Source: a virus
Virus record (IMG/VR): IMGVR_UViG_3300020473_000150
Location: 1 to 21,238 of that record
DNA length: 21,238 nt
Reading direction: 5' to 3' (one strand)
Shown in pieces: positions 2,660 through 14,305 of this stretch (position 1 is its first letter; each line of letters opens with the position of its first letter). The translations under genes and the position numbers were made by a program. The notes beneath the pieces are model-generated. The model made no database searches. It had not been told where the DNA came from and saw nothing but the letters and a program-made list of their open reading frames with translations.

Positions 2660-4003
2660 TTACCATCCAGACATAAAGTGTTGTTGTATTCTTAATTGTC
2701 CTCCTAGGACAGGTGCTGCTAGTGCTCCACCGAAACTAATAGCAACATCACTAATGTTGTTAGTAGATAGCAGAGTTGCATCTGCATCGGGGAATTGTAT
2801 AGTAACTGCGGATTTGATGTTCTGAGCATCAATGGTTATATTACCATTGAGGTCATTAGGGTTATTTATCTTCATCAATTCCATAGTCTTGTTAACCAGA
2901 GTTTGAGTCTTCTTCTCTGTAACAAGTATATTGGAATCACTACCATTATTTAATGGTGCTGTAACCTCATTATCGGGGAAACTAAACACATAGTTTTGGT
3001 TATCCTCAATATTAGAAAGATCAAAAGTTACCTTACGACCTTCTCCATCATTAGGGTCAGTATCGCAGAATACTGCTCCTTTATATACCTTATTAGCTAT
3101 GGTCTGTGCTGATGCTTCACCAACTACCTTAATATTAAGGTCTGGCCATATAACAGTACGATCCTGAGTTAATTGTGATGAATCAAAGATTACATACTTG
3201 GTAGGGTTATTCTCATCATTAGATGGAGTATTAGAGAATGTAGGGTTAACTAAATTCTTGTTAAATATATTCTGCTCAGTAATATCATCAAGTAATGTAG
3301 ATTGTGTCTGTGATGCACCGAAATCAGGTAACCTGTAGGTATGTGAACCTGGTGCTTCCCAAGCATCACACTCAAACTTTGCTATCTTATCTGTGGCAGT
3401 AGATCCAGTAATTTGTAATTCTGAGTCTTTAATAAGAATAGTCTTATTAGTTAAAGTCTGGAAAGTATCATTAGCAACTATAGTAGTACTTGTAGAAGTA
3501 CCAATATTAGGTAAGTCAAAACGACGTGTACCTGACTGTGTAGAAATAGTATCTACGTTGAAATGTGCTCTCTTAGCAGGGTTTTGATCACCTGAAATAT
3601 AAAACTGTGTGTCAGTCTGTACGAAATCACCATTAAAAGTAACATATCCACTACCCTGTGGAGTAATTTCAATGTTAGATGTTGCAGATGCACTATCAAT
3701 CGCTCTAATGATTAGAGTTGATGATCCATCTGTATTTGCTCTTCTACTATTATAGAGAGATGCAGATCCGAAACTAAGTCCAATCTCATCAACTGATGAT
3801 TGGTAGATTCCAGTATCTCTGTCCAAGTCAAAAGCCAATCCTGGAGCTGTCGCTGATCCTGCACTAAGACCACGGAAAAGTTGATTAACTTTTGCCTTTC
3901 TATTAGGTATTAGTGGGTCAGAGATAACTATAGGCATTATGGCTTCGCCAGTTACCAAAGCATCTGAAATCGTTTCTAACTGGGATATCCGTTTAGTTGC
4001 CAC
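2660..4003 (-). CDS. Tail-fibre-like structural protein with about 60-residue repeats
   Basis: The product has 447 residues. Residues 53-78 contain the fibre-type motif AFDLDRDTGIY, a DTGIY element frequent in phage tail fibres. From about residue 160 onward a unit of about 60 residues repeats. Each carries a Pro-Asp/Asn strand (LPN 164, LPD 225, WPD 286, FPD 342, FPD 404); most then show a QTLTNKT-like element (182, degenerate at 244, AQTIANK at 299, QTLVNKT at 367). The repeated PD...QTLTNKT organisation is known from phage fibre shafts. This is the first gene of the three-gene structural unit, with a perfect TATAAATA late promoter 27 bases before its ATG. It is likely a trimeric fibre or whisker component; the receptor role is an inference. 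Confidence 0.7.
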   Translation of the reverse strand: MATKRISQLETISDALVTGEAIMPIVISDPLIPNRKAKVNQLFRGLSAGSATAPGLAFDLDRDTGIYQSSVDEIGLSFGSASLYNSRRANTDGSSTLIIRAIDSASATSNIEITPQGSGYVTFNGDFVQTDTQFYISGDQNPAKRAHFNVDTISTQSGTRRFDLPNIGTSTSTTIVANDTFQTLTNKTILIKDSELQITGSTATDKIAKFECDAWEAPGSHTYRLPDFGASQTQSTLLDDITEQNIFNKNLVNPTFSNTPSNDENNPTKYVIFDSSQLTQDRTVIWPDLNIKVVGEASAQTIANKVYKGAVFCDTDPNDGEGRKVTFDLSNIEDNQNYVFSFPDNEVTAPLNNGSDSNILVTEKKTQTLVNKTMELMKINNPNDLNGNITIDAQNIKSAVTIQFPDADATLLSTNNISDVAISFGGALAAPVLGGQLRIQQHFMSGW

Positions 4004-4029
4004 AGATTTTCAATGATTTCTTACAGTTT

Positions 4030-4037
4030 TATTTATA
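4030..4037 (-). promoter_or_regulatory. T4-type late promoter (TATAAATA)
   Basis: The minus strand reads TATAAATA exactly, the T4 late-promoter consensus recognised by the phage sigma gp55. Transcription would start about 6 bases downstream, giving a leader of about 20 bases before the ATG at 4003. It would drive the structural unit 4003 to 1. A second, divergent copy lies at 4126-4133. Confidence 0.8.
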
Positions 4038-4042
4038 ACACA

Positions 4043-4079
4043 TACGAGGTAAGCCTTTGACTATAGGTACTTACTCGTA
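4043..4079. repeat. Imperfect inverted repeat between divergent late promoters
   Basis: The left arm TACGAGGTAAG (4043-4053) and right arm CTTACTCGTA (4070-4079) pair over 10 bases with one bulged G, around a 16-base loop. It lies upstream of both late promoters, so it is not in either predicted transcript. No T-run follows it. It may be a protein-binding site or chance. Confidence 0.35.
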
Positions 4080-4125
4080 GGCAATAATTTTTGTTAACTT
4101 CAAGATATGTGTTAGCACACCAGGA

Positions 4126-4133
4126 TATAAATA
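4126..4133 (+). promoter_or_regulatory. T4-type late promoter (TATAAATA)
   Basis: A perfect TATAAATA on the plus strand. Start of transcription is expected near 4139, about 20 bases before the ATG at 4159 and its strong ribosome-binding site. It would serve the small plus-strand gene that ends at 4366. Confidence 0.75.
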
Positions 4134-4145
4134 GTGGTAGAATTA

Positions 4146-4167
4146 GAGGAGAGGCAAAATGAAGTGA
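4146..4167 (+). promoter_or_regulatory. Strong ribosome-binding site followed by a two-codon ORF (ATG AAG TGA)
   Basis: A purine-rich Shine-Dalgarno run, GAGGAGAGG (4146-4154), stands 4 bases before ATG at 4159, which is followed by AAG and then TGA (4165-4167). This is the best ribosome-binding site near the promoter at 4126, yet it initiates an ORF of only two codons. Skipping one base after AAG would enter the open frame of the small protein that ends at 4366. Confidence 0.5.
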
Positions 4168-4177
4168 AAACTTAACT

Positions 4178-4366
4178 TTGTTATTATCCCTTTTTTCAGA
4201 AACTATGCATAACCTTAGATCGTCAAATCAATTAGCTGAGTGGAAGCACTCTTCAGACCGTTGCTTAAACACACCACAAGATGAACTAATAGATGATTAT
4301 TTCTCTTGTCTTATTGAGAGTGACAGCTATGAGCAAGAAAGACTCTGTAGACAATTGCTCTGCTGA
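4178..4366 (+). CDS. Small acidic Cys-containing protein, unknown function; start unresolved
   Basis: The open frame begins at a TTG (4178), with the first in-frame ATG at 4205, and ends at TGA 4364-4366 (62 or 53 residues). The C-terminal half is acidic and has a Cys pattern (DDYFSCLIES, then ERLCRQLLC) that recalls small cyanophage proteins I cannot name. Neither TTG 4178 nor ATG 4205 has a good ribosome-binding site. The only strong one precedes ATG 4159 in another frame, which stops after two codons. A +1 shift at AAG-TGA would give a natural-looking N-terminus, MKENLTLLLSLFSETM. A one-base indel (pseudogene or sequencing error), a programmed +1 shift, or true initiation at 4205 all remain possible. 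It is the only plus-strand gene in the left half and is bounded by its own late promoter and terminator. Confidence 0.5.
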   Translation: MLLSLFSETMHNLRSSNQLAEWKHSSDRCLNTPQDELIDDYFSCLIESDSYEQERLCRQLLC

Positions 4367-4422
4367 CTCTGGAGTGTTTCAAACTTTTTCAATTCCCCCT
4401 AACGACTACCGTTGTACATAGC

Positions 4423-4448
4423 AATACCCCCGAAAGGGGGTATTTTAT
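4423..4448. terminator. Bidirectional rho-independent terminator with GAAA tetraloop
   Basis: Arms AATACCCCC (4423-4431) and GGGGGTATT (4436-4444) pair over 9 bp and close a GAAA loop, a stable GNRA tetraloop. A TTTTATT run follows on the plus strand. It lies between convergent units, the plus gene ending at 4366 and the minus operon ending at 4452, and probably stops both. Confidence 0.85.
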
Positions 4449-4451
4449 TGT

Positions 4452-4643
4452 TCAATAAAATCTTGGTTGTTGTACTTCTACATCAATAGTATCGAATAGT
4501 CTATTAAGTGATTTAGCAAACTGTCTGTATCCTGATCCAACATATAACTGTCCTAAAACTACTGATACAGTCGCAGCACCCCAGAAGAGATAATAGAATC
4601 TACTCTTCACCTGTGCTCTTCTCTTTTCTGTCTTTAGAGTCAT
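4452..4643 (-). CDS. Small single-span membrane protein, unknown function
   Basis: The 63-residue product has a basic N-terminus (TEKRRAQVKSR, about 5-15), then one hydrophobic segment (about residues 16-38, containing YLFWGAATVSVVLGQLYVG), then a mostly polar C-terminus. This predicts one transmembrane helix with the basic end inside the cell. It is the last gene of the talC operon, ends 4 bases from the terminator arm, and overlaps the preceding 45-codon gene by 44 bases in another frame. A weak Shine-Dalgarno (GAGA) precedes the ATG. Such small membrane proteins are common in cyanophages. Role unknown. Confidence 0.7.
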   Translation of the reverse strand: MTLKTEKRRAQVKSRFYYLFWGAATVSVVLGQLYVGSGYRQFAKSLNRLFDTIDVEVQQPRFY

Positions 4644-4737
4644 TTTCTCTCATATTTTTGATTATTCTATCATAATCTCTGGCACTGTCAAGTAGTGCCT
4701 TTTTCAAATCTTCGTAGTCCCATTCGATTTCATCCAT
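4600..4737 (-). CDS. Small charged protein (45 residues), hypothetical
   Basis: An ATG at 4735-4737 opens 45 codons ending at TAG (4600-4602). The protein begins MDEIEWDYEDLKKALLDSAR and continues with a charged helix and a Lys/Glu-rich tail. It fills the otherwise empty space between talC (stop at 4744) and the membrane protein gene, 6 bases after talC, and overlaps the next gene by 44 bases. The amphipathic helical pattern and tight operon packing support a real gene. No strong ribosome-binding site is visible, so coupling to talC translation is likely. Function unknown. Confidence 0.55.
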   Translation of the reverse strand: MDEIEWDYEDLKKALLDSARDYDRIIKNMRENDSKDRKEKSTGEE

Positions 4738-4743
4738 TAACAA

Positions 4744-5442
4744 TCACAGGGTATCAAGATCTTTACCATGTTTTGCTGTTGCGAATGGTGGTGGATTGAA
4801 TACGGACTTCTTACTATCTTGATAGTCTTTATCAAAGATCTCTAGTCCTTTATCTGTAAGGATATGTTTATACATTCCTTCAAATATCTTAGGTGGCATG
4901 GTTACTATGTTAGCACCATTCCAGAATGCTCTACTGACTTTATATACATCACGAATAGATGCAGCAAGAATCTGTGTCTTCTTAACTCCTTGCACCTTGT
5001 AGACTTCTGCTATTGATCGGATAACCTCCAACCCAGCAACGCTATTGTCGTCCAACCTCCCAATAAAAGGAGAGACGTACGTAGCACCTGCCTTTGCAGA
5101 TAGGATAGCCTGAGCAGCATTGAATATAAGCGTAACATTTACTCTAACTCCGTTATCTGATAATTGTTTACAAACTTTGAGTCCTTCAGGTGTGCATGGT
5201 ACCTTAATAGTGCATACCTCACCAAACTCAGCAGCAAGTCTCCTTGCTTCAAACTCCATGTCCTCTACAACTTCCATGCTAATGTCAGGGACACCAGCAA
5301 TCATCAACTCACGATAGACATCCAATGGATCTCTACCACTCTTCTTAATAAGAGATGGATTAGTTGTGATACCGTCAATCAATCCAGTCTCAAAGTGTTT
5401 GAGAATGGTTGGGACATCAGCAGTATCTAAAAAGATTTTCAT
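4744..5442 (-). CDS. talC: Transaldolase (TalC/FSA-type, short form)
   Basis: At 232 residues it matches the short TalC subfamily. It transfers a dihydroxyacetone unit between sugar phosphates in the non-oxidative pentose phosphate pathway through a Schiff base on Lys. Visible motifs are FLDTADV at the N-terminus (Asp6), GITTNPSL (24-31), the catalytic TIKVP with Lys80, NVTLIF (102-107), and SPFIGR (124-129). Phe127 in SPFIGR is the residue typical of true transaldolases, where fructose-6-phosphate aldolase has Tyr. Cyanophage TalC is an established auxiliary metabolic gene, thought to raise pentose phosphate flux and NADPH/ribose for phage DNA synthesis. The ATG overlaps the upstream stop (ATGA). 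It is fourth in the operon driven by the sigma-70-type promoter at 6186-6214, suggesting early expression. Confidence 0.95.
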   Translation of the reverse strand: MKIFLDTADVPTILKHFETGLIDGITTNPSLIKKSGRDPLDVYRELMIAGVPDISMEVVEDMEFEARRLAAEFGEVCTIKVPCTPEGLKVCKQLSDNGVRVNVTLIFNAAQAILSAKAGATYVSPFIGRLDDNSVAGLEVIRSIAEVYKVQGVKKTQILAASIRDVYKVSRAFWNGANIVTMPPKIFEGMYKHILTDKGLEIFDKDYQDSKKSVFNPPPFATAKHGKDLDTL

Positions 5443-5705
5443 TCAGGGACTTCCTCATAATTTTCAATAAATTCATCTACTGTAAACAGTAGTGGGTGAC
5501 ATTGCTCTGCTATCAGATAGTCAGACCATCTCATCATATCTTCCATAGAATATCCAGTGGCATCTGCTGCCTCTTGCTCAACATGCTCAACCTCTTGCAT
5601 TGCTTGAGGTAACTCCTCAAATGTAAAAGGTATGCCTTGGATGTACCACATATCAACTACTTTACCGTCAAGATAGCAATAACTGCGTGTGATACGTCCC
5701 TTCAT
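5439..5705 (-). CDS. Hypothetical acidic protein (88 residues)
   Basis: The 88-residue product is acidic, especially in the C-terminal two-thirds. It begins with a short beta-like part (MKGRITRSYCYLDGKVVD, which reads like a hairpin) and continues with helices containing EELPQAMQEVEHVEQEA and a C-terminal DEFIENYEEVPE. No transmembrane segment or catalytic motif was recognised. It is co-translated with its neighbours: it starts 1 base after the Phd-like gene and its stop overlaps the talC start (ATGA). Its place beside a Phd/YefM-like gene raises the idea of a partner protein, but it does not look like a Doc, YoeB or RelE toxin. Function unknown. Confidence 0.65.
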   Translation of the reverse strand: MKGRITRSYCYLDGKVVDMWYIQGIPFTFEELPQAMQEVEHVEQEAADATGYSMEDMMRWSDYLIAEQCHPLLFTVDEFIENYEEVPE

Positions 5706-5706
5706 G

Positions 5707-5964
5707 TCAGAATCCTTTGGTCATATCCCTCAAAGCACTGTCCACAAATGTTCGTGTTCCCACTGGATCTGGGACAAACTCATCGGGGTTTGGAATATTT
5801 AGCTCAGGTTCCTGTGGGTCTTGAGCAACCGATGCTACTGGTGAGATAATACAAACAATACCCTTATCAGTAGTAACCTTAAGAGTATGTCCTTTCTCTA
5901 CCAGATTCAATGAAAAAGGCAGGTTCTCTTGTAACTCTGCCTGTGTTAATTGAATAATATTCAT
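5707..5964 (-). CDS. Phd/YefM-type antitoxin-like protein
   Basis: The 85-residue product opens with a pattern close to the Phd/YefM fold: a strand (NIIQLTQAEL), a helix with Leu/Asn (QENLPFSLNLVEKG, 12-25), a beta strand (HTLKVTTDKG) and a final strand (IVCIISPV, 36-43). In Phd/YefM proteins this part is the DNA-binding dimer domain, and the C-terminus wraps the toxin. Here the C-terminal half is Pro- and Asp-rich (PELNIPNPDEFVPDPVGTR). No toxin gene of a known family is adjacent. It could be a decoy antitoxin against host toxins, an operon autorepressor, or only a distant look-alike. ATG overlaps the upstream stop (ATGA). Confidence 0.55.
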   Translation of the reverse strand: MNIIQLTQAELQENLPFSLNLVEKGHTLKVTTDKGIVCIISPVASVAQDPQEPELNIPNPDEFVPDPVGTRTFVDSALRDMTKGF

Positions 5965-6164
5965 AGGTATGTAATCATGTCCTCTGGGACAGTAGCTTTA
6001 AAATGCTGTAGTGTTTCAGTGAACCCATCCACTCCATCTTCACTGAACTCCCACGTCACTATCTCATCATATCCCTCATTATCCATGATCTTTACTTGTC
6101 TCTTCGATACATCAATCCAGATATGCTCTAGATATGTGTCTGCATCGCCTGTTATCTCTGCCAT
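5961..6164 (-). CDS. Hypothetical acidic protein (67 residues)
   Basis: The 67-residue acidic product alternates beta-like segments (IWIDVSKRQVKIMD, EIVTWEFSEDG) with a short helix (FTETLQHF). It is the first gene after the sigma-70-type promoter, about 15 bases from the predicted transcription start, so the leader is very short and shows no clear Shine-Dalgarno sequence. The stop overlaps the next start by ATGA. No family was recognised. Being promoter-proximal it should be among the most strongly transcribed genes of this operon. Confidence 0.65.
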   Translation of the reverse strand: MAEITGDADTYLEHIWIDVSKRQVKIMDNEGYDEIVTWEFSEDGVDGFTETLQHFKATVPEDMITYL

Positions 6165-6185
6165 GTTGGATGGGTCACTGGGTAT

Positions 6186-6214
6186 AGTATATATCAGGTG
6201 CTACCCCTTGTCAA
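6186..6214 (-). promoter_or_regulatory. Sigma-70-type (early-like) promoter of the talC operon
   Basis: The minus strand has a -35 box TTGACA (6214-6209), a 17-base spacer, and a -10 box TATACT (6191-6186): a perfect -35, optimal spacing and 5 of 6 in the -10. The predicted start is near 6179, about 15 bases before the first ATG at 6164. The -35 box begins 1 base after the gp5 stop codon. It should be read by host RNA polymerase with its housekeeping sigma, giving the operon early expression unlike the late genes around it. Confidence 0.85.
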
Positions 6215-6215
6215 G

Positions 6216-8990
6216 CTAGTTGAGAAGGACTGGTAACCCGAAGATCTGACAAGGACCAGAAGAGCATCCCACTGCCATGTAACCAGAGTTAACCACGTAT
6301 GCTCCCATACCACTGTTACACTGGTTAATAATAGCACCTTGTGGTACAAACTCAGCAATAACACCAGTAGGTGCTGATATAAAGGTAGCATGGAAACAGT
6401 TTTGAGATCCAGCCAATACATCTGCCATACTACCAGGCATTTGCTGACCAACTGTGATTCTAACCTGTGCAGGTGGTGCAACTCCTGGGAATGGTAAGTC
6501 AGTAGTAATATCAACAATACAACCCTTAACTAGATTAAACTGGCCTGTTAATGAGGTTGATGTCATATTAAATAATGCAATAAATTCAAATCTACCTGAG
6601 TTTAAGAAGGAAGTAATCCAGTTTGCCTGTTGTATAATCTCACCATCTGCAACCAACTCAATAGCATTACCTTCTATCTTAATATCCTGAGATACAATCT
6701 GTGTTGATTCAATACCAGATAGACTTCCCTTAGCAAACTGTATCTTATACTCACCACCTACAGCAACATCACGATCACCTTCAAATCTAGCAGAAGACTT
6801 CTGCTCAGTATCATCAGTTAATTTACCTGATAGTTGAGGACCAAATGTTGTCCTACCCATGTAGTCTGCATCAGGTGCAAATGGTATCTGCTCTACTGGA
6901 TAGAAACCACCTACATTCTCCTCAACTAACTTTGCCAATCTCTTATCTAACCTACTTAAGGAATATGTTTCTTCCTCTTCTGACTCAGAAGTCTCAGCAG
7001 CAGTAACTGCTGCCTGACTAGCATCAGTAATAGTAGCTGATTGAGACTGACTGATCACATCAGCAGATACTCTTCCCTGTGTAACATTGGTATCAACCTG
7101 TTTTGTTGATCCACCAGTAGTGGTACTATCAGGTGTACTACTATCACCCTCTGACTCTGCCTGTGGTCCTTGAGATACATGTGTATTCCAAGCCCCACCA
7201 ACCTCAAGGTGGAAATTACCGCCAACCTTAAGAGTGAAATCATTATCAATAGTCATGGCATAATTCTTTTGAATATTCTCACACTTATCTTTAGCGACTA
7301 TCTTAGTCTCACAGTTTGGCACATTGGTGTGCCTATTACCAAACTTATCTTCAAAAGTACTTACACCACCAGGACCAGTAACCATCCTCTTCTCTTTATC
7401 TGGTGTAGCATCATCTATAATTCTTGTACCATTCAATGCACTATATGTCTGCATTAAATAAGGATTAACACCTTCAAACATCTTGTCGATATAATTCTTC
7501 TGACTCTCTGTTGAAGTTGTAGGTGTAGCTGCCATATTCAACGTTGAAGATGTACCCTCACCATATAGGCTACCTACATCCTCATATGGTGTGCCTTTAA
7601 TAGCATCATCTAGGTTGTCACATTCCGTGGTACCTATCAGTGGGAACCACGACTTTGATTTCGGTCTCTTTATCTTCCTGTTACAACTCTTCTTAAATAA
7701 TGCTGCAAGAATAGCAAGAAGGATCTGAATTAGACTACCCCAATCTAATGATGTGAAGTCAAACTCAAATATCATTGAGACAGTATCACCTAATGACTTT
7801 GCTGCACCTGCCATACCTTTAGCAGCACTAACAGCAGAGATAACATCACCAGCAACACTCTTAACACGATTCATTGCTTCCTTGATACCAGTCAAGATGC
7901 GATTGCTTAAACCCTTAACAGCAGAGTCAATCTTACCAGCTATACTACTAGTGGCTATCTTATCTACAGCAAGGCTCGCCATTTGGTTGGCAAAGTTTGC
8001 CGTATCACTCAGTGCTCCCTTCACCAGTCCTAACCACATTGGTGTCTTAGCACAGAATAGAGCAAAGATCTGCTCTAGGAATGTCATCAATAGATTAACA
8101 ACTACTATAGGAATAAACTGAGATATAATCTTCACCAACATTCCTACAACCTCAGCGATTAACTTCGCTAACATCTCTTTTAGAGGTGCAAGAATACCTG
8201 ATATACCACCAGCAAGGAAGTTCATTGCAGTACCAAGTTGCTGCCTAACCTTATCTCCTGCTATCTTATTACCAGTGATAACAGATACAAATCCACCAGG
8301 TCCAGAGGACATAGACGCTGCTGTCTCACCTAACTGAGTGAGCATTCTCTTTAAGTCTTTCTCAAATCCAGCACCAGCAGGACCAGCAACACCATCAGCA
8401 ATAGACTGAGCTTGGACAGGTGGTTTAGCAGGGTTACTTACTGGGTTACCAGGTACCGTTACCTCACCAGCATTAAGACCAGCACCTCTTGATTCCTCAA
8501 CTCCACCAGTAGCAGTAGCTGGTGTGTTTGGATGTTTGGGGAATGAGTTACCATCTAACTGCTTCTCCCCCTGCATATTCTCTTTCTGGGGTGTCTTAGT
8601 CTCTAACTTCTTAGCAATCTCTGGATCTGCAATAGTTGTAGCAGCTTCTTTCTTCTCTTGACTAAATCCTCTAAATGCACCTAGTACACAAGGTAACTGT
8701 GCTTCTTCACCATCAAGGAAGAAACCTAATACCCATGCACCGCACTGTAATTCTGTTGTAGTACCTGTTGATTTGGTTTGTGGTTGATCACAAGGTAATA
8801 GCACTGTTGCCCAAGGTAGGACTTCAGTAGGTACTTCCTTTAAATATGCCTGTCCTTCTTGATTACCTGTATACCAACCAAGAATACGCACCTTGACACG
8901 ACCAGTCTGAGAGGGGTCTTCTACGTCCTCGACCTCTCCTACCCACCAAGTGTACCCATCTCTTCCAATGAAATCAGTGCGTGTTGCCAT
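6216..8990 (-). CDS. 5: gp5-like baseplate hub/spike protein without lysozyme domain
   Basis: The product has 924 residues. Residues 10-108 resemble the OB-fold of T4 gp5: WWVGEVEDVEDPSQTGRVKV, then LPWATVL, then GFFLDGEEAQLPCVLGAF, matching the DP..GRV.VR and PVVLG hallmarks. The T4 lysozyme domain that normally follows is absent. In its place are a Pro/Ala-rich linker (110-210), a strongly hydrophobic stretch (about 253-320), a second one (415-432) and basic KRPKSKSWFP (441-450). Residues 540-605 (TGPGGVSTFEDKFGNRH, then FTLKVGGNFHLEVGG) resemble the entry to the beta-helical spike of gp5/VgrG. The C-terminal 300 residues are Ser/Thr-rich, ending in a Gly/Cys-containing region. It presumably forms the central spike with the gp27-like protein. 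A GATAAATA late promoter precedes it. Confidence 0.8.
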   Translation of the reverse strand: MATRTDFIGRDGYTWWVGEVEDVEDPSQTGRVKVRILGWYTGNQEGQAYLKEVPTEVLPWATVLLPCDQPQTKSTGTTTELQCGAWVLGFFLDGEEAQLPCVLGAFRGFSQEKKEAATTIADPEIAKKLETKTPQKENMQGEKQLDGNSFPKHPNTPATATGGVEESRGAGLNAGEVTVPGNPVSNPAKPPVQAQSIADGVAGPAGAGFEKDLKRMLTQLGETAASMSSGPGGFVSVITGNKIAGDKVRQQLGTAMNFLAGGISGILAPLKEMLAKLIAEVVGMLVKIISQFIPIVVVNLLMTFLEQIFALFCAKTPMWLGLVKGALSDTANFANQMASLAVDKIATSSIAGKIDSAVKGLSNRILTGIKEAMNRVKSVAGDVISAVSAAKGMAGAAKSLGDTVSMIFEFDFTSLDWGSLIQILLAILAALFKKSCNRKIKRPKSKSWFPLIGTTECDNLDDAIKGTPYEDVGSLYGEGTSSTLNMAATPTTSTESQKNYIDKMFEGVNPYLMQTYSALNGTRIIDDATPDKEKRMVTGPGGVSTFEDKFGNRHTNVPNCETKIVAKDKCENIQKNYAMTIDNDFTLKVGGNFHLEVGGAWNTHVSQGPQAESEGDSSTPDSTTTGGSTKQVDTNVTQGRVSADVISQSQSATITDASQAAVTAAETSESEEEETYSLSRLDKRLAKLVEENVGGFYPVEQIPFAPDADYMGRTTFGPQLSGKLTDDTEQKSSARFEGDRDVAVGGEYKIQFAKGSLSGIESTQIVSQDIKIEGNAIELVADGEIIQQANWITSFLNSGRFEFIALFNMTSTSLTGQFNLVKGCIVDITTDLPFPGVAPPAQVRITVGQQMPGSMADVLAGSQNCFHATFISAPTGVIAEFVPQGAIINQCNSGMGAYVVNSGYMAVGCSSGPCQIFGLPVLLN

Positions 8991-9005
8991 CGTATTACTT
9001 TTCTT

Positions 9006-9464
9006 TTATTTATCAAGTCTCTTAAAACAAAATTCTCCTTCCGACTCTTCTTTACCCCATCGGAAAGCATTTGTCTCTAAATCATACCCAGTATCTATAG
9101 CACGATACTCTGTGCCATTGAATCTTATCTTGGAGACCATCCTCGTATTACCTTGGATGCATTCTCCGTCAGTATTCCCATTCCACCAAACTCCATCCCA
9201 GTGCCAAACGAAAGGACAGGAAGGAGTATTAGTGATAAGATTAGTAGTTTTAGTATAGACGATGTTTTCATCCATCCTTGCCCAATCATATTGGATATAG
9301 TTGTAAGGATCATCCTCACCCTTATACTTATACCATGACTTCGCTAATATTATACCATAACTAGGTTCAGTTAATCGTATATCAATCTGAGGCCATTGTG
9401 AGGGATTAGAATATGCCTGATCCCTATTCCTATAGTGACCTACTACTTCATTAAACAACATCAA
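9006..9464 (-). CDS. cpeT: CpeT/CpcT-family bilin lyase homologue
   Basis: The product has 152 residues, shorter than cellular CpeT (about 200). The N-terminus GHYRNRDQAYSNPSQWPQID (9-28) matches the family's opening (G.F.N..QA..NP..). The C-terminus has DTGYD (124-128), then RWGKEESEGEFCFKR (135-149), matching the family's closing WG...GPF.F. In between is WHWDGVWWNGNTDGECIQG, covering the conserved Gly-x-Cys area (Cys102). CpeT/CpcT proteins attach or carry phycobilins for phycobiliproteins. Cyanophages often carry cpeT, presumed to maintain light harvesting during infection. It overlaps the oxygenase gene by 14 bases. The reduced middle part makes lyase activity uncertain; a chaperone or bilin-binding role is possible. 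Confidence 0.8.
   Translation of the reverse strand: MMLFNEVVGHYRNRDQAYSNPSQWPQIDIRLTEPSYGIILAKSWYKYKGEDDPYNYIQYDWARMDENIVYTKTTNLITNTPSCPFVWHWDGVWWNGNTDGECIQGNTRMVSKIRFNGTEYRAIDTGYDLETNAFRWGKEESEGEFCFKRLDK
9007..9014 (-). promoter_or_regulatory. Late promoter for gp5 (GATAAATA)
   Basis: The minus strand reads GATAAATA, fitting the T4-type late motif NATAAATA. It overlaps the stop codon of cpeT and lies 17 bases before the gp5 ATG at 8990, with predicted start near 9001 and a leader of about 11 bases. It gives gp5 its own late transcript apart from the metabolic genes upstream. Confidence 0.65.
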
Positions 9465-10095
9465 TATCTTTCCATCTTTGGGGATCTATTATAGCAAATT
9501 CGTTATTACTCTTAACATGAGATGCAGTAACTATTATATCATATGATATAGAATATCGGGGAGTATTACCATAGTATGTTTCAACTTCATGCTCTATATG
9601 TGATGGGAATATGAATATTCTATCCTCTTCAGGTATGTAATGAGTATCACCATAACTGAGGTCATTCAACTCTTCCACATGTATAGGTAACCTATGACTA
9701 TTAGGTGAATAGAATTTAAGTCTACCACCAGTTAATGAGTTACCTGTCTTAGGATAATATACTACTGATAATACTGAGTTAGGATGAGTATGTCTATTGA
9801 TCTTACCACCCTTCTGTATAACCACAGGCCATGCCTTTGATGCATATATCTTAATCTTATCTAAGTCAACATTAAAATGCTTAAGATATTCCCTACAATG
9901 GGATGCTACCTTACCATTTAACCAGGTAAATCTATCATCATCAAACATCAAATAGTCACCATAGTTATCACCAGAGTAACTATTATTTTCAGAAACAATC
10001 CCTCCGAGATACTCAAGCATTTGTCGCTTAGTATCTTCAGAGGGCATTAAATCTTCATGATATATTGTGGTTGGAAACCATAAATCAATCGTCAT
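9451..10095 (-). CDS. 2-oxoglutarate/Fe(II)-dependent oxygenase
   Basis: The 214-residue product fits the small double-stranded beta-helix oxygenases that are abundant in cyanophages. It opens with LWFPTTIYHED, the usual start of this subfamily. The core shows HTHPNSVLSVVYY (102-114) with candidate iron ligands His102/His104, then FPSHIEHEVETYYG (163-176) with His166/His169, then RYSISYDI (180-187) with Arg180 as likely 2-oxoglutarate anchor. The substrate is unknown; proposals for relatives include hydroxylation of proteins or nucleobases. It overlaps cp12 upstream by 11 bases and cpeT downstream by 14, so the three genes are translationally linked. Family assignment is firm, substrate is not. 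Confidence 0.85.
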   Translation of the reverse strand: MTIDLWFPTTIYHEDLMPSEDTKRQMLEYLGGIVSENNSYSGDNYGDYLMFDDDRFTWLNGKVASHCREYLKHFNVDLDKIKIYASKAWPVVIQKGGKINRHTHPNSVLSVVYYPKTGNSLTGGRLKFYSPNSHRLPIHVEELNDLSYGDTHYIPEEDRIFIFPSHIEHEVETYYGNTPRYSISYDIIVTASHVKSNNEFAIIDPQRWKDIDVV

Positions 10096-10312
10096 ATACT
10101 AAACATTCTGGCTCATCTGGATTCTGATCGCAGAATAATTCTAGACAGTTTGGATCATGATGATCTCCTGCCTCAATCTCTGCCTTATGGTGGTCAGCAT
10201 ACTCTATAAGGTCGTGTAACTCTTCTTTAAAATGACGACGTGCAGCAGGGCTGACAGTCGGATCATCTACCAACTCCTTATCATGCTGAATGTGCTGTTC
10301 TATGGTTTGCAT
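10085..10312 (-). CDS. cp12: CP12, Calvin-cycle inhibitor protein
   Basis: I read a 75-residue protein starting MQTIEQHIQH. Its C-terminus, CLELFCDQNPDEPECLVYDD, is the CP12 signature: a Cys pair spaced by eight residues (Cys61, Cys70) around CD.NP..PEC and a final VYDD. CP12 bridges GAPDH and phosphoribulokinase into an inactive complex, shutting the Calvin cycle; the C-terminal module binds GAPDH. The N-terminal half has no Cys, and the AWD-VEEL motif of cellular CP12 is replaced by HFKEELHDLIEYADHH. An ATG at 10324 gives four extra residues, but GGAAAG lies 5 bases before ATG 10312, and the CTAAATA motif is 25 bases upstream of it, so 10312 is preferred. Known cyanophage metabolic gene, expected to act with TalC. 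Confidence 0.9.
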   Translation of the reverse strand: MQTIEQHIQHDKELVDDPTVSPAARRHFKEELHDLIEYADHHKAEIEAGDHHDPNCLELFCDQNPDEPECLVYDD

Positions 10313-10336
10313 TTTACTTTCCATAAGCTGTATAGT

Positions 10337-10343
10337 TATTTAG
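10337..10343 (-). promoter_or_regulatory. Candidate late promoter, CTAAATA, before cp12
   Basis: The minus strand reads CTAAATA between the hub gene and cp12, 25 bases before ATG 10312. A TATACA follows two bases later and could act as a -10 box, but the -35 region at 17 bases (GTGATT) is poor. Spacing agrees with the CTAAATA copies at 458 and 17569. Confidence 0.4.
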
Positions 10344-10353
10344 GCTAGTTAAA

Positions 10354-11862
10354 TCACTTTTTAGGTTTTGAATCCCTAATAAGGAATAGTTTTGTAGTTA
10401 TACCAGTCCTTCTGTATACGTGGGTTAGTGCAGCGATAAGATACTTACCACTGAAATCCCTATCCTGTTGTACATTCTCACCATCTTCTTGTGATGCTGG
10501 TATCACTACTTTCACAATACCACCTGCTGCAAGAGATGTATTTCCTGGTACTACTATGTTTAACTTGATTGCCTTAAGTAAATTATACCTCGCTGCTGCA
10601 TATTGTGCAACTGCCATAGCATCTACGTCAGGGTTTGTTCCGTTATTCGGATTTCCAGTACTAGTCTGATTCTTAATTCCAGGTAATGCTCTGATCTTCA
10701 TCCTAGTTGGTTGTGACTTCTCTAGGTCAAAGAATTGTGGCACTGCAAATGGTGGTGCTTTCTCTAGAGTGTCTGCCTTAGCAAATACATGTTTGAAATT
10801 CAATATTCTCATCTCGTTTATAGTACCACCTGGTGCTGTGCCCATTCCAGTACCACTATCTGCTGTTACATTGGTGGCTTCTTCCTCCTCTGCTTCCTCT
10901 TTACTACCTGAAGGTGGTGCAAAACTATCCTTCTGAGATGGTAATGATATACCTATCGCAGCAGTTTTATAGGTACCCAACCTCATGTTAGCTAAGTGAT
11001 TTGCTTTATCAGGATAAGTAAGTGACTCAATAGCATACATTGGATTTACACCTGTCTGTGCCTGTTGCACATACCTATATGTGTAAACACCATTCTGTTC
11101 ACCCTCACCCTTAGCAAGACTATCAATAGATCTGAAATTAAACCCATTCCTATTCTCCCAGAATAAGAATCCAGACTGCTTCTTATCTGCTTTACTCTCT
11201 GATAATCTAGTTACCTTGTCGGATACGAATGCTATGGCATCACTAGGTTTCCAACTACAAGACACAAAGGTAATAGGAGAATGATTCTCAAAATTATCCG
11301 ATCTTATTTTCTTACCACCCTTACACTTAAGCCACTTCTCACATATAAGTTTAGGTATACAATCAGCTTGAAGAGTGCCTTCACCTGGTCCAAATGCTTT
11401 AAATACCTTATTACCTTCATCGTGATACATCTCTGGAGATATACAATGTAGGATATACATTTGTCCTCTCTCAGTCTTTGATATACTACCAATCTTATAA
11501 ACCACCATAGTAGTATCCAATGCTTCCTTATTGATAGCAGTAGCAGTGGTCATCTTTATTCTGACCTTCTCACCACCCTTGAGCTTACGATTAAAGTCAA
11601 CACTGTCTAAAATACTAATATCACACCTAAGAAAAGAAGACTCTATAGACTCGTGATAAGAAAATTGTAATATTAACTCTGTTATATCAAAGGTATCACC
11701 ATCACTACCTTCCGCATCACCTTTTACTTCAGTAAGCTGTAACTTATCAATCTTAAATTCTCTGGGAGAATCTCCTGCTTGTATAGATCCCGATGGTGTG
11801 ACACCATATGAAATCTTTGACCATGCATCTGTTACATCATTAATTAACTCTAAAAATGGCAT
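10354..11862 (-). CDS. Baseplate hub protein, gp27/gpD-like
   Basis: The 502-residue product opens with a segment typical of tail hub proteins of the gp27/late-control-D fold: DITELILQFSYHESIESSFL (about 58-77), then CDISILDSVDF, then KGGEKVRIKM, the pattern of a beta-barrel forming the hub ring. An Ala/Glu-rich linker with EEAEEEEA lies around residue 325. The C-terminal part contains NIVVPGNTSLAAGGIVKVVIP, which resembles the second barrel of that fold. It would trimerise, bind the gp5-like spike and support the tube platform. The ATG lies 1 base after the tape-measure-like gene's stop. Synteny with gp5 and gp26/gp51, as in the T4 hub cluster, supports the call. Sequence resemblance to T4 gp27 itself is distant. 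Confidence 0.65.
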   Translation of the reverse strand: MPFLELINDVTDAWSKISYGVTPSGSIQAGDSPREFKIDKLQLTEVKGDAEGSDGDTFDITELILQFSYHESIESSFLRCDISILDSVDFNRKLKGGEKVRIKMTTATAINKEALDTTMVVYKIGSISKTERGQMYILHCISPEMYHDEGNKVFKAFGPGEGTLQADCIPKLICEKWLKCKGGKKIRSDNFENHSPITFVSCSWKPSDAIAFVSDKVTRLSESKADKKQSGFLFWENRNGFNFRSIDSLAKGEGEQNGVYTYRYVQQAQTGVNPMYAIESLTYPDKANHLANMRLGTYKTAAIGISLPSQKDSFAPPSGSKEEAEEEEATNVTADSGTGMGTAPGGTINEMRILNFKHVFAKADTLEKAPPFAVPQFFDLEKSQPTRMKIRALPGIKNQTSTGNPNNGTNPDVDAMAVAQYAAARYNLLKAIKLNIVVPGNTSLAAGGIVKVVIPASQEDGENVQQDRDFSGKYLIAALTHVYRRTGITTKLFLIRDSKPKK

Positions 11863-11863
11863 C

Positions 11864-14305
11864 TTACATAAACTCCACAGGATCTGTCAAAAACTCAGCA
11901 ATCAAACCATACTTAGGTTTTAGATACTTATCAGCATCCATATGGTCAGATCCTGGAATAAGGATAGGAACATCATCAACTGCACTGGATCCTATTGGTA
12001 GACCTCCTCCAGATGCAGCATTGATATTTACAAGACCTTGCGATTCCTCAATTGACTTTTGTAATTTCTTACGTCTTTCTTCTTGTGCTTTCTGTTTAGC
12101 ATTATCTATGATCTCACCTGTCTTCTTCATTATACCAGAAGCCTGATACATTGAATGACCTTGCTTATCAAAGTCAAAGAATCCACCAGTTGCTTGGTCA
12201 GCAGCACCTGCCAACCACCTCATAATACCCTTTGGTTTACCCTCCTCATCCTTTGCAGTAACTATATTCTTTGCTTTATTACCAAGCCACTTCGCTAACC
12301 TTACTTGAGGTGTCTTATTAAGAGTATCCTTCAACCAAGAACCCATTCCCTTCTTTCTCTTAGGTTTAATTATTTCACCACCAGCTTTATAAGGTCTAAG
12401 TCTTTGATCAAATGCTGTTGGTAGAGAGTAACCTTGTCTCTTAGCTTGACCCATTCTCCTTGCAGTGAGACCCTTATCAGTTTTAGTTGCAGGAGTATCA
12501 AAAGGTACCACAAATGCTTTACCACCTGCCTTTCTACCAACCCACTCTTTACCGTGACCAATGAATGATGTTCTCTTACCATCTAATGATACAGGATATC
12601 CTGACTGAGGTCCATTAATCCAACCACCTTTTGCAAAACCAAATGGATCTGGTTCACTTCCATCAGATATCGGATAACCACCTGTCTCTCTATTATCCTC
12701 CAGCACTTTTATCTGATTATTAATACTCTCAAGCTCCCATTTCTCCATTCCTGGATGCTTTCTTGCTTCCAGCATCTGAATCTTACGGTCAACAACATCA
12801 TCATTGGACATGTTACCTGAAGTAACCTCACCCTTCTGAACTGTAGCATTCTCTTTTGTTACTGTAGTCTTAACACCATCATCACCACCACCAGGTTTTA
12901 CTTCTGCACCTGTATCCTTACCTTTATCACCAAGGAATAGTTTCATCACAGCAGTTAATGCTTTGATACCTAAGAATAGAGGTGCAAACATCACCTGCAA
13001 TCCCACACTTATTATCTTACCTATCAATGGCATATGTGGTTCTACAACCTCAAGTATACCACTCATGAATGCTCCCAATGTCTTAAAGAAGTCTTCAAGT
13101 GGATCTTTAATAGCTGACAATACAGTATTAAATATCTTACTGATCTCTCCAAAGAAGTCCTTAACAGGTCCGATGATTGGATCTAGCATAGGACCTATTG
13201 CTTTACCAACAGCACCACCTGCCATGGTACCAATCATACCACCAACAGCACCCATACCTGGAATACCAGACATCTCACCTAGTTTAGCACCAAGCATCTG
13301 ACCGCCAGCAGCACCAGCTCCAGCACCAATTATTTCTCCCTCAGTACCTCCAGCAGCAGCGACTGTTCCAGCAGCAACTGCACCAGCACCTAATCCAGTA
13401 GCAATCTTACCAAACTTACTAGAAAAGAAATTACCTTTCTTACCTCCTATCTTCTTAAGTTGGAACTGCCTGAGCTTTGCATCCTTACCCTGTGCCCCAA
13501 ACAGATTCTTAAGACCATTAGTTAAACCTCCTATTACCTTACCAGCAGTGTCTAGTAATAGTTTAGGATTCTTAAGGAATACCAGACCTGCGAATAACGG
13601 TACAGCACCCAGTAGAAACTGGACTACACCAAATAAACCTTTAAGACTTAAGGGATTCTCTAGAAAATTAATAATACCATCAAGTGCCATCCCTCCTAGG
13701 AATGAAACAACATTGAATACAAACTTACCAATAGATGATAATATCTGAATAAGTTTCTGCACCTTCTTTGGATTATTACCTATCCACATAAGGACTGGTA
13801 TTGCTATTAACTTACCTAACCAGCTGAATAACCCCAACAAACTACTGAATAGTGCTGATCCTGTACTCTTTGCACCTTCTACTACCTTCTGACCAAATGG
13901 TTTTGGTTTAGTCTTCTCTGCTTCCTCCTCATCCTTATTTCTCTTATCTAACTTCCTCTGCTTCTCTGTTGCTTTATCCTTCTTGGTCTTAGATATTTTC
14001 TCTACTTTCTTAGTCTTCTCTTCTTGTTTAAGTAGAGCAGATTTATCCTTTATACCCTGTCTAATACTACCTTTCCATGCTTCCAACATAAACTGTGTGT
14101 TGATAGCAATGCTGTTAAGAGTACGTCCTAAAGCATTAAGACCCATCATGACAGAAGTCATTCCCCTTTGAATGCTCTTCTCAGTCTTAGGTAATCTTGC
14201 AGCAGCAGTTAACGGTGTATAAGAATTCTGTTTACCTTCGATCCCTTTATAAGAGATCATCTTATACAACGCTGCTTTCTGTACTTTAGCTTTTACTTCT
14301 GCCAT
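11864..14305 (-). CDS. Tape-measure-like tail protein (second of tandem pair)
   Basis: The product has 813 residues. A highly charged Lys/Glu coiled-coil-like segment (80-135) precedes hydrophobic helices (150-245). Then come Gly/Ala-rich hydrophobic stretches (300-372, with GAGAVAAGTVAAAGG) and an amphipathic region (380-460). The C-terminal third is basic and carries FAKGGWINGPQSGYPVSLDG, RKAGGKAFVVPF and YKAGGEI, the GG-type motifs often found at the C-terminus of tape measure proteins. It shares this layout with the gene immediately upstream. Tape measures fill the tail tube, set its length and help DNA entry; T4 gp29 has this job. The gene starts 3 bases after its neighbour. The assignment rests on composition, motifs and position, not on alignment to gp29. 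Confidence 0.6.
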   Translation of the reverse strand: MAEVKAKVQKAALYKMISYKGIEGKQNSYTPLTAAARLPKTEKSIQRGMTSVMMGLNALGRTLNSIAINTQFMLEAWKGSIRQGIKDKSALLKQEEKTKKVEKISKTKKDKATEKQRKLDKRNKDEEEAEKTKPKPFGQKVVEGAKSTGSALFSSLLGLFSWLGKLIAIPVLMWIGNNPKKVQKLIQILSSIGKFVFNVVSFLGGMALDGIINFLENPLSLKGLFGVVQFLLGAVPLFAGLVFLKNPKLLLDTAGKVIGGLTNGLKNLFGAQGKDAKLRQFQLKKIGGKKGNFFSSKFGKIATGLGAGAVAAGTVAAAGGTEGEIIGAGAGAAGGQMLGAKLGEMSGIPGMGAVGGMIGTMAGGAVGKAIGPMLDPIIGPVKDFFGEISKIFNTVLSAIKDPLEDFFKTLGAFMSGILEVVEPHMPLIGKIISVGLQVMFAPLFLGIKALTAVMKLFLGDKGKDTGAEVKPGGGDDGVKTTVTKENATVQKGEVTSGNMSNDDVVDRKIQMLEARKHPGMEKWELESINNQIKVLEDNRETGGYPISDGSEPDPFGFAKGGWINGPQSGYPVSLDGKRTSFIGHGKEWVGRKAGGKAFVVPFDTPATKTDKGLTARRMGQAKRQGYSLPTAFDQRLRPYKAGGEIIKPKRKKGMGSWLKDTLNKTPQVRLAKWLGNKAKNIVTAKDEEGKPKGIMRWLAGAADQATGGFFDFDKQGHSMYQASGIMKKTGEIIDNAKQKAQEERRKKLQKSIEESQGLVNINAASGGGLPIGSSAVDDVPILIPGSDHMDADKYLKPKYGLIAEFLTDPVEFM

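What the first reader, a model, noticed from the sequence alone, without database searches (positions are those of the whole stretch)
5707..5964. Phd/YefM-like antitoxin homologue without a known toxin beside it
The first 43 residues follow the Phd/YefM pattern, ending in IVCIISPV. The following 88-residue gene resembles no known toxin. In an early operon, an orphan antitoxin could neutralise host toxins that abort infection, or repress its own operon.
Basis: partly seen in the sequence, partly recalled or inferred. Interest (0 to 1): 0.55.

Follow-up and report, generated by a model that had tools for sequence, protein, structure and literature searches.

The report
Cyanophage Phd-like protein without a toxin
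This small gene of a virus of ocean cyanobacteria makes a protein shaped like a bacterial antitoxin but has no toxin beside it; it belongs to a gene found across this virus family, is probably made early in infection, and looks adapted to a job other than the usual antitoxin one.

Summary
Residues 1-43 of the 85-residue protein at 5964-5707 (-) have the Phd/YefM N-terminal fold, and no toxin lies beside the gene. It is not a curiosity of this contig. It is a divergent member of the single-copy 'Phd-like antitoxin' of T4-like cyanophages (phrog_375, T4-GC 342), sitting in its usual place behind gp5. A syntenic relative (S-CREM1 ORF54, 'YefM-like') is in print, with the proposal that it counters host toxin-antitoxin systems.

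The 88-residue neighbour is not an obligate partner. The steady partner is the upstream gene DUF7294, which overlaps the Phd-like start by 4 nt in 50 of 61 loci. DUF7294 is missing only from the two phages whose Phd-like gene lies elsewhere.

The basic residue that YefM needs to bind DNA (R10) is R or K in 30 of 30 cellular homologues but in only 1 of 48 phage proteins, where it is mostly acidic. Self-repression by the usual surface is therefore unlikely. I favour an early protein-binding role with DUF7294. Neutralising host toxins remains open.

The parts
6186..6214 (-). sigma-70-type promoter TTGACA-17-TATACT just behind the gp5 stop codon
   Evidence: 11 of 12 consensus positions; equivalents with <=2 mismatches in 20 of 29 distinct upstream regions against 0.33 expected from shuffles; 7 of 9 named phages at <=2 mismatches; prediction only
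5961..6164 (-). DUF7294 gene (67 aa, PF23966, phrog_662, T4-GC 341), first gene of the operon and steady partner
   Evidence: Pfam E=5.5e-25; 286 phage records; 19 of 21 records tested
5961..5964 (-). 4-nt overlap (ATGA) of the DUF7294 stop and the Phd-like start
   Evidence: same 4-nt overlap in 50 of 61 loci, near copies counted
5707..5964 (-). Phd-like protein, 85 aa: the finding
5836..5964 (-). residues 1-43: Phd/YefM-type N-terminal domain, without the basic residue at the YefM R10 position (Q12 here)
   Evidence: model pLDDT 89-95 in residues 1-40
5710..5835 (-). residues 44-85: acidic C-terminal part (net charge -5), helix 67-82 predicted
   Evidence: omega below about 0.35 against near relatives
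5743..5787 (-). residues 60-74, subfamily motif P(D/E)EF.PDPVGTR.(F/Y)V
   Evidence: D66, P67 and V74 invariant in 32 of 32; absent from the syn9-type proteins
5439..5705 (-). 88-aa gene (phrog_4134, T4-GC 730), unknown function, 1 nt behind the Phd-like stop
   Evidence: 80 phage records; model pLDDT 91 with no PDB fold match; next gene in 33 of 54 loci
4744..5442 (-). talC, transaldolase
   Evidence: TAL_FSA E=2.6e-50, phrog_440
4600..4743 (-). small gene (about 45-47 aa), unknown
   Evidence: ORF kept in several relatives
4452..4643 (-). small gene (63 aa, phrog_2000), unknown
   Evidence: phrog_2000 E=1.4e-29; kept in relatives
4423..4444 (.). hairpin behind the last gene; terminator-like only as read on the + strand
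   Evidence: on the - strand no T run follows it
6216..8990 (-). gp5, baseplate hub and tail lysozyme (late gene upstream)
   Evidence: phrog_694 E=1.5e-157

Best explanation
The protein is a family-wide, early-expressed cyanophage accessory protein built on a Phd/YefM-type dimer domain that has been turned from DNA binding to protein binding. It is made in translational coupling with DUF7294 from its own sigma-70 promoter, together with talC. Most likely the N-terminal domain dimerises, and the acidic C-terminal segment folds onto a protein target, either the DUF7294 product itself or a host protein that the two engage together, to adjust the host early in infection. Shown by computation: fold, single copy in the records searched, synteny, overlap with DUF7294, promoter sequence, loss of the DNA-contact residue. 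Inferred: early expression, dimerisation, protein target, joint action with DUF7294.
For: Phd-type fold and homology to phrog_375. One copy in each of 13 of 14 records and 7 of 7 more; the miss, G005, holds a copy (L015) that the profile did not reach. DUF7294 in 19 of 21 records, missing only in S-PM2 and S-CAM1, where the Phd-like gene lies elsewhere beside glutaredoxin. 4-nt overlap in 50 of 61 loci. Promoter in 20 of 29 distinct regions against 0.33 expected. YefM R10 position: R/K in 30 of 30 cellular homologues, 1 of 48 phage proteins, with 30 of 48 acidic. N-domain net charge -3 to 0, C-part -4 to -9 in the 17 phage rows of A5. Purifying selection on both halves.
Against: No complex was predicted or measured; DUF7294 has no known fold or function here. 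S-PM2 and S-CAM1 keep a Phd-like gene without DUF7294, so the pairing is not obligate; in P-RSM4 another small gene lies between the two. S-PM2's copy reaches the Pfam score cut-off. The promoter is missing in the S-WAM1, P-RSM6 and S-SZBM1 clade. The Phd fold is a common scaffold, and the C-terminal part of the model is of middling confidence (pLDDT 61-81). E. coli YefM's own N-domain has net charge 0, so charge alone says little.
Confidence: 0.45

Rival explanations
1. Orphan antitoxin as counter-defence: the C-terminal segment binds and neutralises host type II toxins (YoeB, RelE or Doc class) that would stop phage growth.
For: Phd/YefM fold without a toxin; C-part acidic and conserved; proposed in print for S-CREM1 ORF54 (PMC9964418, passages), which is the syntenic relative; some marine Synechococcus carry toxin-antitoxin pairs, and CB0101 has yefM-yoeB and phd-doc (PMC5498466, passages). 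Phage-borne orphan antitoxins exist elsewhere (T4 Dmd, DarTG1-neutralising enzymes), seen only as titles in a reference list.
Against: PMC5498466 found no toxin-antitoxin pairs in Prochlorococcus (passages), yet the gene is in phages isolated on it (P-TIM40, P-RSM6, P-SSM3, P-SSM7, P-RSM4). PMC9964418 states that S-CREM1 and CB0101 YefM have no homology. C-terminal parts differ between cyanophage clades.
Confidence: 0.28
2. Transcription regulator: it represses its own early operon, or shuts off host genes, by binding DNA as Phd and YefM do.
For: Phd-type domain; the promoter lies directly in front; syn9 has a perfect 8+8 inverted repeat in its promoter spacer.
Against: R10 position not basic in 47 of 48 phage proteins against 0 of 30 cellular ones. 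R10 and R31 of YefM are reported essential for DNA binding (PMC4803016, passage). No conserved palindrome and no TGTACA at the window promoter; the syn9 repeat is not kept in its near relatives L075 and L076.
Confidence: 0.14
3. DUF7294 and the Phd-like gene are a true two-gene toxin-antitoxin-like module with DUF7294 as the active partner.
For: Two small overlapping genes in the same order, lost or separated together in the two exceptions; 286 phage records with DUF7294.
Against: No toxin family match for DUF7294; a strictly lytic phage gains little from an addiction module; order reversed against the usual antitoxin-first order (recalled).
Confidence: 0.08
4. Tail or baseplate assembly helper acting with gp5.
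For: Directly behind gp5 (and DUF7294) in most phages seen.
Against: Own sigma-70 promoter; operon shared with talC; in S-PM2 and S-CAM1 the gene has moved beside glutaredoxin while gp5 stays.
Confidence: 0.05

Closest known systems
Cyanophage 'Phd-like antitoxin' (phrog_375, T4-GC 342; syn9 gp22, P-RSM4 PRSM4_033)
   Same: N-terminal domain, single copy, position behind gp5-DUF7294, no toxin beside it
   Different: longer C-terminal part with a PDPVG motif (phrog_31964); 19-25% identity to the syn9-type proteins
S-CREM1 ORF54 'YefM-like antitoxin' (PMC9964418)
   Same: same place: gp5, DUF7294, then this gene; same printed idea of countering host toxins
   Different: 29% identity to the window protein; different C-terminal part and downstream genes
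E. coli YefM and phage P1 Phd antitoxins
   Same: beta-alpha-alpha-beta-beta N-terminal domain
   Different: no cognate toxin gene; no basic residue at R10; no TGTACA operator; 13-16% identity to YefM
S-PM2p167 and S-CAM1 SXBG_00122 'Phd-like antitoxin'
   Same: the single Phd-like gene of their genomes
   Different: elsewhere in the genome, beside glutaredoxin (in S-CAM1 also talC), no DUF7294

Membership tests
Phd/YefM type II antitoxin (PF02604) | beta-alpha-alpha-beta-beta N-terminal domain | tested here: met
   best 18 VIA rows all Phd/YefM-type, Z up to 7.4
Phd/YefM type II antitoxin (PF02604) | sequence match over the Pfam cut-off | tested here: not met
   window protein: no hit at E<=1; 6 of 32 relatives hit at E<=0.1, best 2e-5
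Phd/YefM type II antitoxin (PF02604) | basic residue at YefM R10 for operator contact | tested here: not met
   Q in the window protein; 1 of 48 phage proteins basic against 30 of 30 cellular homologues
Phd/YefM type II antitoxin (PF02604) | cognate toxin gene beside it | tested here: not met
   no toxin match for the 88-aa gene, DUF7294 or the other neighbours scanned
Phd/YefM type II antitoxin (PF02604) | palindromic operator at its own promoter | tested here: not met
   no 6+6 inverted repeat and no TGTACA in the stretch 150-300 nt upstream that holds the promoter; TGTACA in the window only at 4413, 10469 and 20296
Phd/YefM type II antitoxin (PF02604) | C-terminal segment neutralises a toxin | not testable with these tools
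   needs binding or rescue experiments
Phd/YefM type II antitoxin (PF02604) | dimerisation through the N-terminal domain | not tested
   no complex prediction available
Cyanophage Phd-like family (phrog_375, T4-GC 342) | profile homology | tested here: met
   E=1.3e-5; profile-profile probability 97.4
Cyanophage Phd-like family (phrog_375, T4-GC 342) | place behind gp5 and DUF7294, 4-nt overlap | tested here: met
Cyanophage Phd-like family (phrog_375, T4-GC 342) | single copy in the genome | tested here: inconclusive
   one copy in the 21-kb window, which is only a fragment; one copy found in 20 of 21 other records

The most novel reading that the evidence does not exclude
DUF7294 and the Phd-like protein form a conserved, translationally coupled two-gene module for early host takeover across T4-like cyanophages, in which an antitoxin fold has lost DNA binding and become the binding partner of a protein so far seen only in cyanophages, acting on a host target that is not a toxin.
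Probability: 0.3. Interest if true: 0.6.

Novelty: new member of a known kind. Interest (0 to 1): 0.38.

Why it matters
The label 'antitoxin' on this gene in many cyanophage records implies a function that the sequence only half supports. If the fold has been turned to another use, a very widespread early gene of the T4-like phages of marine cyanobacteria is misnamed, and its true target is a concrete, testable point of host control. If it does neutralise toxins, it would show that toxin-based defence matters in picocyanobacteria. The pairing with DUF7294 gives a specific partner to test.

Tried and rejected
88-aa neighbour as toxin or obligate partner: rejected. It is next to the gene in 33 of 54 loci; 5 more have it after a gap of 158-165 nt; 15 have another gene next (2OG-Fe(II) oxygenase, talC directly, EndoV and others); L022 ends before one is seen. 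Its confident model has no Foldseek match with probability over 0.14 and no VIA row at Z>=2; per the tool's note a missing match does not show a new fold.

Cellular origin: the scan of genome contigs gave 2 relatives, both phage DNA. L071 is 98.9% identical to P-TIM40 over most of its length; L070 aligns along nearly its whole length with the window. No cellular close relative was found with those patterns.

PDB sequence search with A2 and A3: best hits are not significant. Toxins in host genomes could not be searched (no cyanobacterial genome handle); that point rests on PMC5498466.

Late-promoter motif ATAAATA: 7 matches in the window against 7.6 expected. The two in front of gp5 (9007-9013) and of the gene starting at 4003 (4030-4036) are in fitting places but not significant as a set.

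First alignment A1 used a window range shifted by one codon and was not used further. Promoter, overlap and neighbour counts left out L042, L045, L049, L051, L054-L057 (truncated or near copies) and L059, L062 (no Phd-like gene at that place). The 54 and 61 loci include the window and near copies; the 29 regions were thinned at 85% identity. P-RSM4 (L064) was among the 29 although a gene lies between, which lowers the count.

Full report
What is there. The window is a 21,238-base IMG/VR virus record, a piece of a T4-like cyanophage: gp5 hub-lysozyme, CP12, a 2OG-Fe(II) oxygenase and talC were identified by profile. Close relatives (76-99% identity over the full length) are in 22 IMG/VR loci, and 54 loci in all encode a relative. 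Against near relatives pN is far below pS in both halves (for L004, omega 0.044 for residues 1-43 and 0.162 for 44-85), so it is a protein under selection.

Is it Phd/YefM-like? Yes for the first half. PHROG 375 'Phd-like antitoxin' matches residues 2-47 at 1.3e-5, and all 16 members of A2 match it. The profile of 32 relatives matches the syn9-type cyanophage Phd-like proteins with probability 97.4, E=1e-11. The same profile against the single YefM sequence gives only 8.4; as controls, DUF7294 and the 88-aa family against YefM give below 1. The window protein has no PF02604 hit; 6 of 32 relatives hit it weakly. The model (pLDDT 80.7, pTM 0.47; 89-95 in the first 40 residues) has strand-helix-helix-strand-strand and then a helix at 67-82. 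PDB neighbours are Phd, YefM and VapB46-N in the first 14 Foldseek ranks (E 0.018-0.083; none at 0.001) and in the first 18 VIA rows (Z 7.4 to 5.0, first unrelated row 4.8). Among predicted viral proteins several of the best eight are cyanophage proteins named PhdYefM, prevent-host-death, antitoxin or Phd-AT.

It is a family-wide cyanophage gene. Behind gp5 and DUF7294, syn9, ACG-2014d, P-RSM4, P-SSM3, S-SSM5 and S-RIM2 carry a gene annotated 'Phd-like antitoxin'. Relatives of syn9 gp22 are in 281 phage records, all with cyanophage names; the window's own branch was seen in P-TIM40 and S-WAM1 and, with an S-WAM1-type query, also in S-SZBM1 and P-RSM6. Whole-record searches found one copy each in 13 of 14 records and 7 of 7 further ones; the miss (G005) holds a copy, L015, that the profile did not reach. 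In S-PM2 and S-CAM1 the single copy lies elsewhere, beside glutaredoxin, in S-CAM1 also near talC.

The promoter. In relatives the hexamers recur at the same place, in several with unrelated spacers; syn9 has the perfect consensus. Of 29 distinct upstream regions, 20 have a site with at most 2 mismatches and 11 with at most 1, against 0.33 and 0.005 expected from shuffles. Two cautions. In many relatives the first hexamer reads TTGCCA and lies inside the end of gp5, so coding constraint may help to keep it; and the S-WAM1, P-RSM6 and S-SZBM1 clade has no such site. Across the 4000-12000 region promoter-like sites are not enriched (18 against 26.2), so the case rests on conservation. Early cyanophage genes are reported to have sigma-70 motifs and late ones NATAAATA (PMC2984593, passages). 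talC and cp12 were in the middle cluster in one Prochlorococcus phage (PMC5082946, passages). Early or middle expression of this operon is therefore inferred, not shown.

The partner. The 88-aa gene (phrog_4134, T4-GC 730) is next in 33 of 54 loci, but 15 of 54 have something else next: 2OG oxygenase, talC directly, EndoV and others (with 30-36 and 69). It has no toxin-like fold or family. Upstream, DUF7294 overlaps the Phd-like start by 4 nt in 50 of 61 loci. DUF7294 is in 19 of 21 records, and the two without it, S-PM2 and S-CAM1, are the two whose Phd-like gene has moved. P-RSM4 has a small gene between the two. DUF7294 rang in none of 14 control genomes, and its profile found nothing significant in the PDB. 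Its function is unknown.

DNA binding. R10 and R31 of YefM are reported essential for DNA binding (PMC4803016, passage). On a joint alignment, position 10 is R in 27 and K in 3 of 30 cellular PF02604 proteins, but in 48 phage proteins it is E 29, Q 11, A 3, T, D, G, I and K once each. Position 31 varies in both groups (R in 12 of 30 and 9 of 48). The 30 come from the best matches in 118 genomes of one phylum, so they are a convenience sample; the 48 include close relatives. The window promoter region has no 6+6 inverted repeat and no TGTACA. The syn9 spacer has an 8+8 repeat, not kept in its near relatives. Self-repression by the usual surface is thus unlikely.

What it may do. The C-terminal half is acidic and conserved within the branch, with P(D/E)EF.PDPVGTR, and differs from the syn9-type C-terminal part. 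That fits a protein-binding tail whose target or contact varies between clades. Counter-defence against host toxins was proposed for S-CREM1's YefM (ORF54), TacA and MazE genes (PMC9964418, passages). I found that ORF54 sits in this same place, behind gp5 and a DUF7294 gene. Against it as the general role: PMC5498466 found toxin-antitoxin pairs in some marine Synechococcus but none in Prochlorococcus (passages), while P-TIM40, P-RSM6, P-SSM3, P-SSM7 and P-RSM4, isolated on Prochlorococcus, carry the gene; such phages may also infect Synechococcus. I therefore prefer an early protein-binding role together with DUF7294 (0.45) over toxin neutralisation (0.28).

Novelty. Fold, family and the counter-defence idea are known. 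What I did not find in print, by the searches and 88 of the held library only (listings, and passages of PMC9964418 and PMC9146016), is the pairing with DUF7294, the loss of the R10 residue across the family, or the link of the longer PDPVG branch to the Phd-like family.

Noticed in passing
L071 (NZ_RMVE01000006.1, 188235 bases): A contig filed under the bacterium Nonlabens xiamenensis is 97-99% identical to cyanophage P-TIM40 over the stretch compared; its length is close to the P-TIM40 genome, so it looks like foreign phage DNA in the assembly.
   Followed up: partly
L070 (PAZU01000056.1): A contig of a 'Euryarchaeota' MAG aligns at 76-80% with the window along nearly all of the 8.3 kb fetched; phage DNA binned with an archaeal MAG.
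   Followed up: partly
L002 6112-6270 (S-WAM1, P090810_020): The annotated gene starts well inside the Phd-like reading frame; the conserved frame begins near 5986-5992, so the N-terminal domain is cut off in the record.
   Followed up: no
L058 2950-2967 (syn9 promoter spacer): Perfect inverted repeat ACACCCTGGACAGGGTGT across the -35/-10 spacer of the gp21-gp22 promoter; not kept in ACG-2014b or S-RIM8.
   Followed up: partly
L073 1546-2659 (S-CAM1): talC, glutaredoxin and the Phd-like gene lie side by side; in the window talC is also in the same operon as the Phd-like gene, hinting at a lasting link between talC and this gene.
   Followed up: no
window 5439-5705: The 88-aa family (phrog_4134) gives a confident model (pLDDT 91) without any PDB match and is found in 80 cyanophage records, in some beside CpeT or tRNA genes.
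   Followed up: partly
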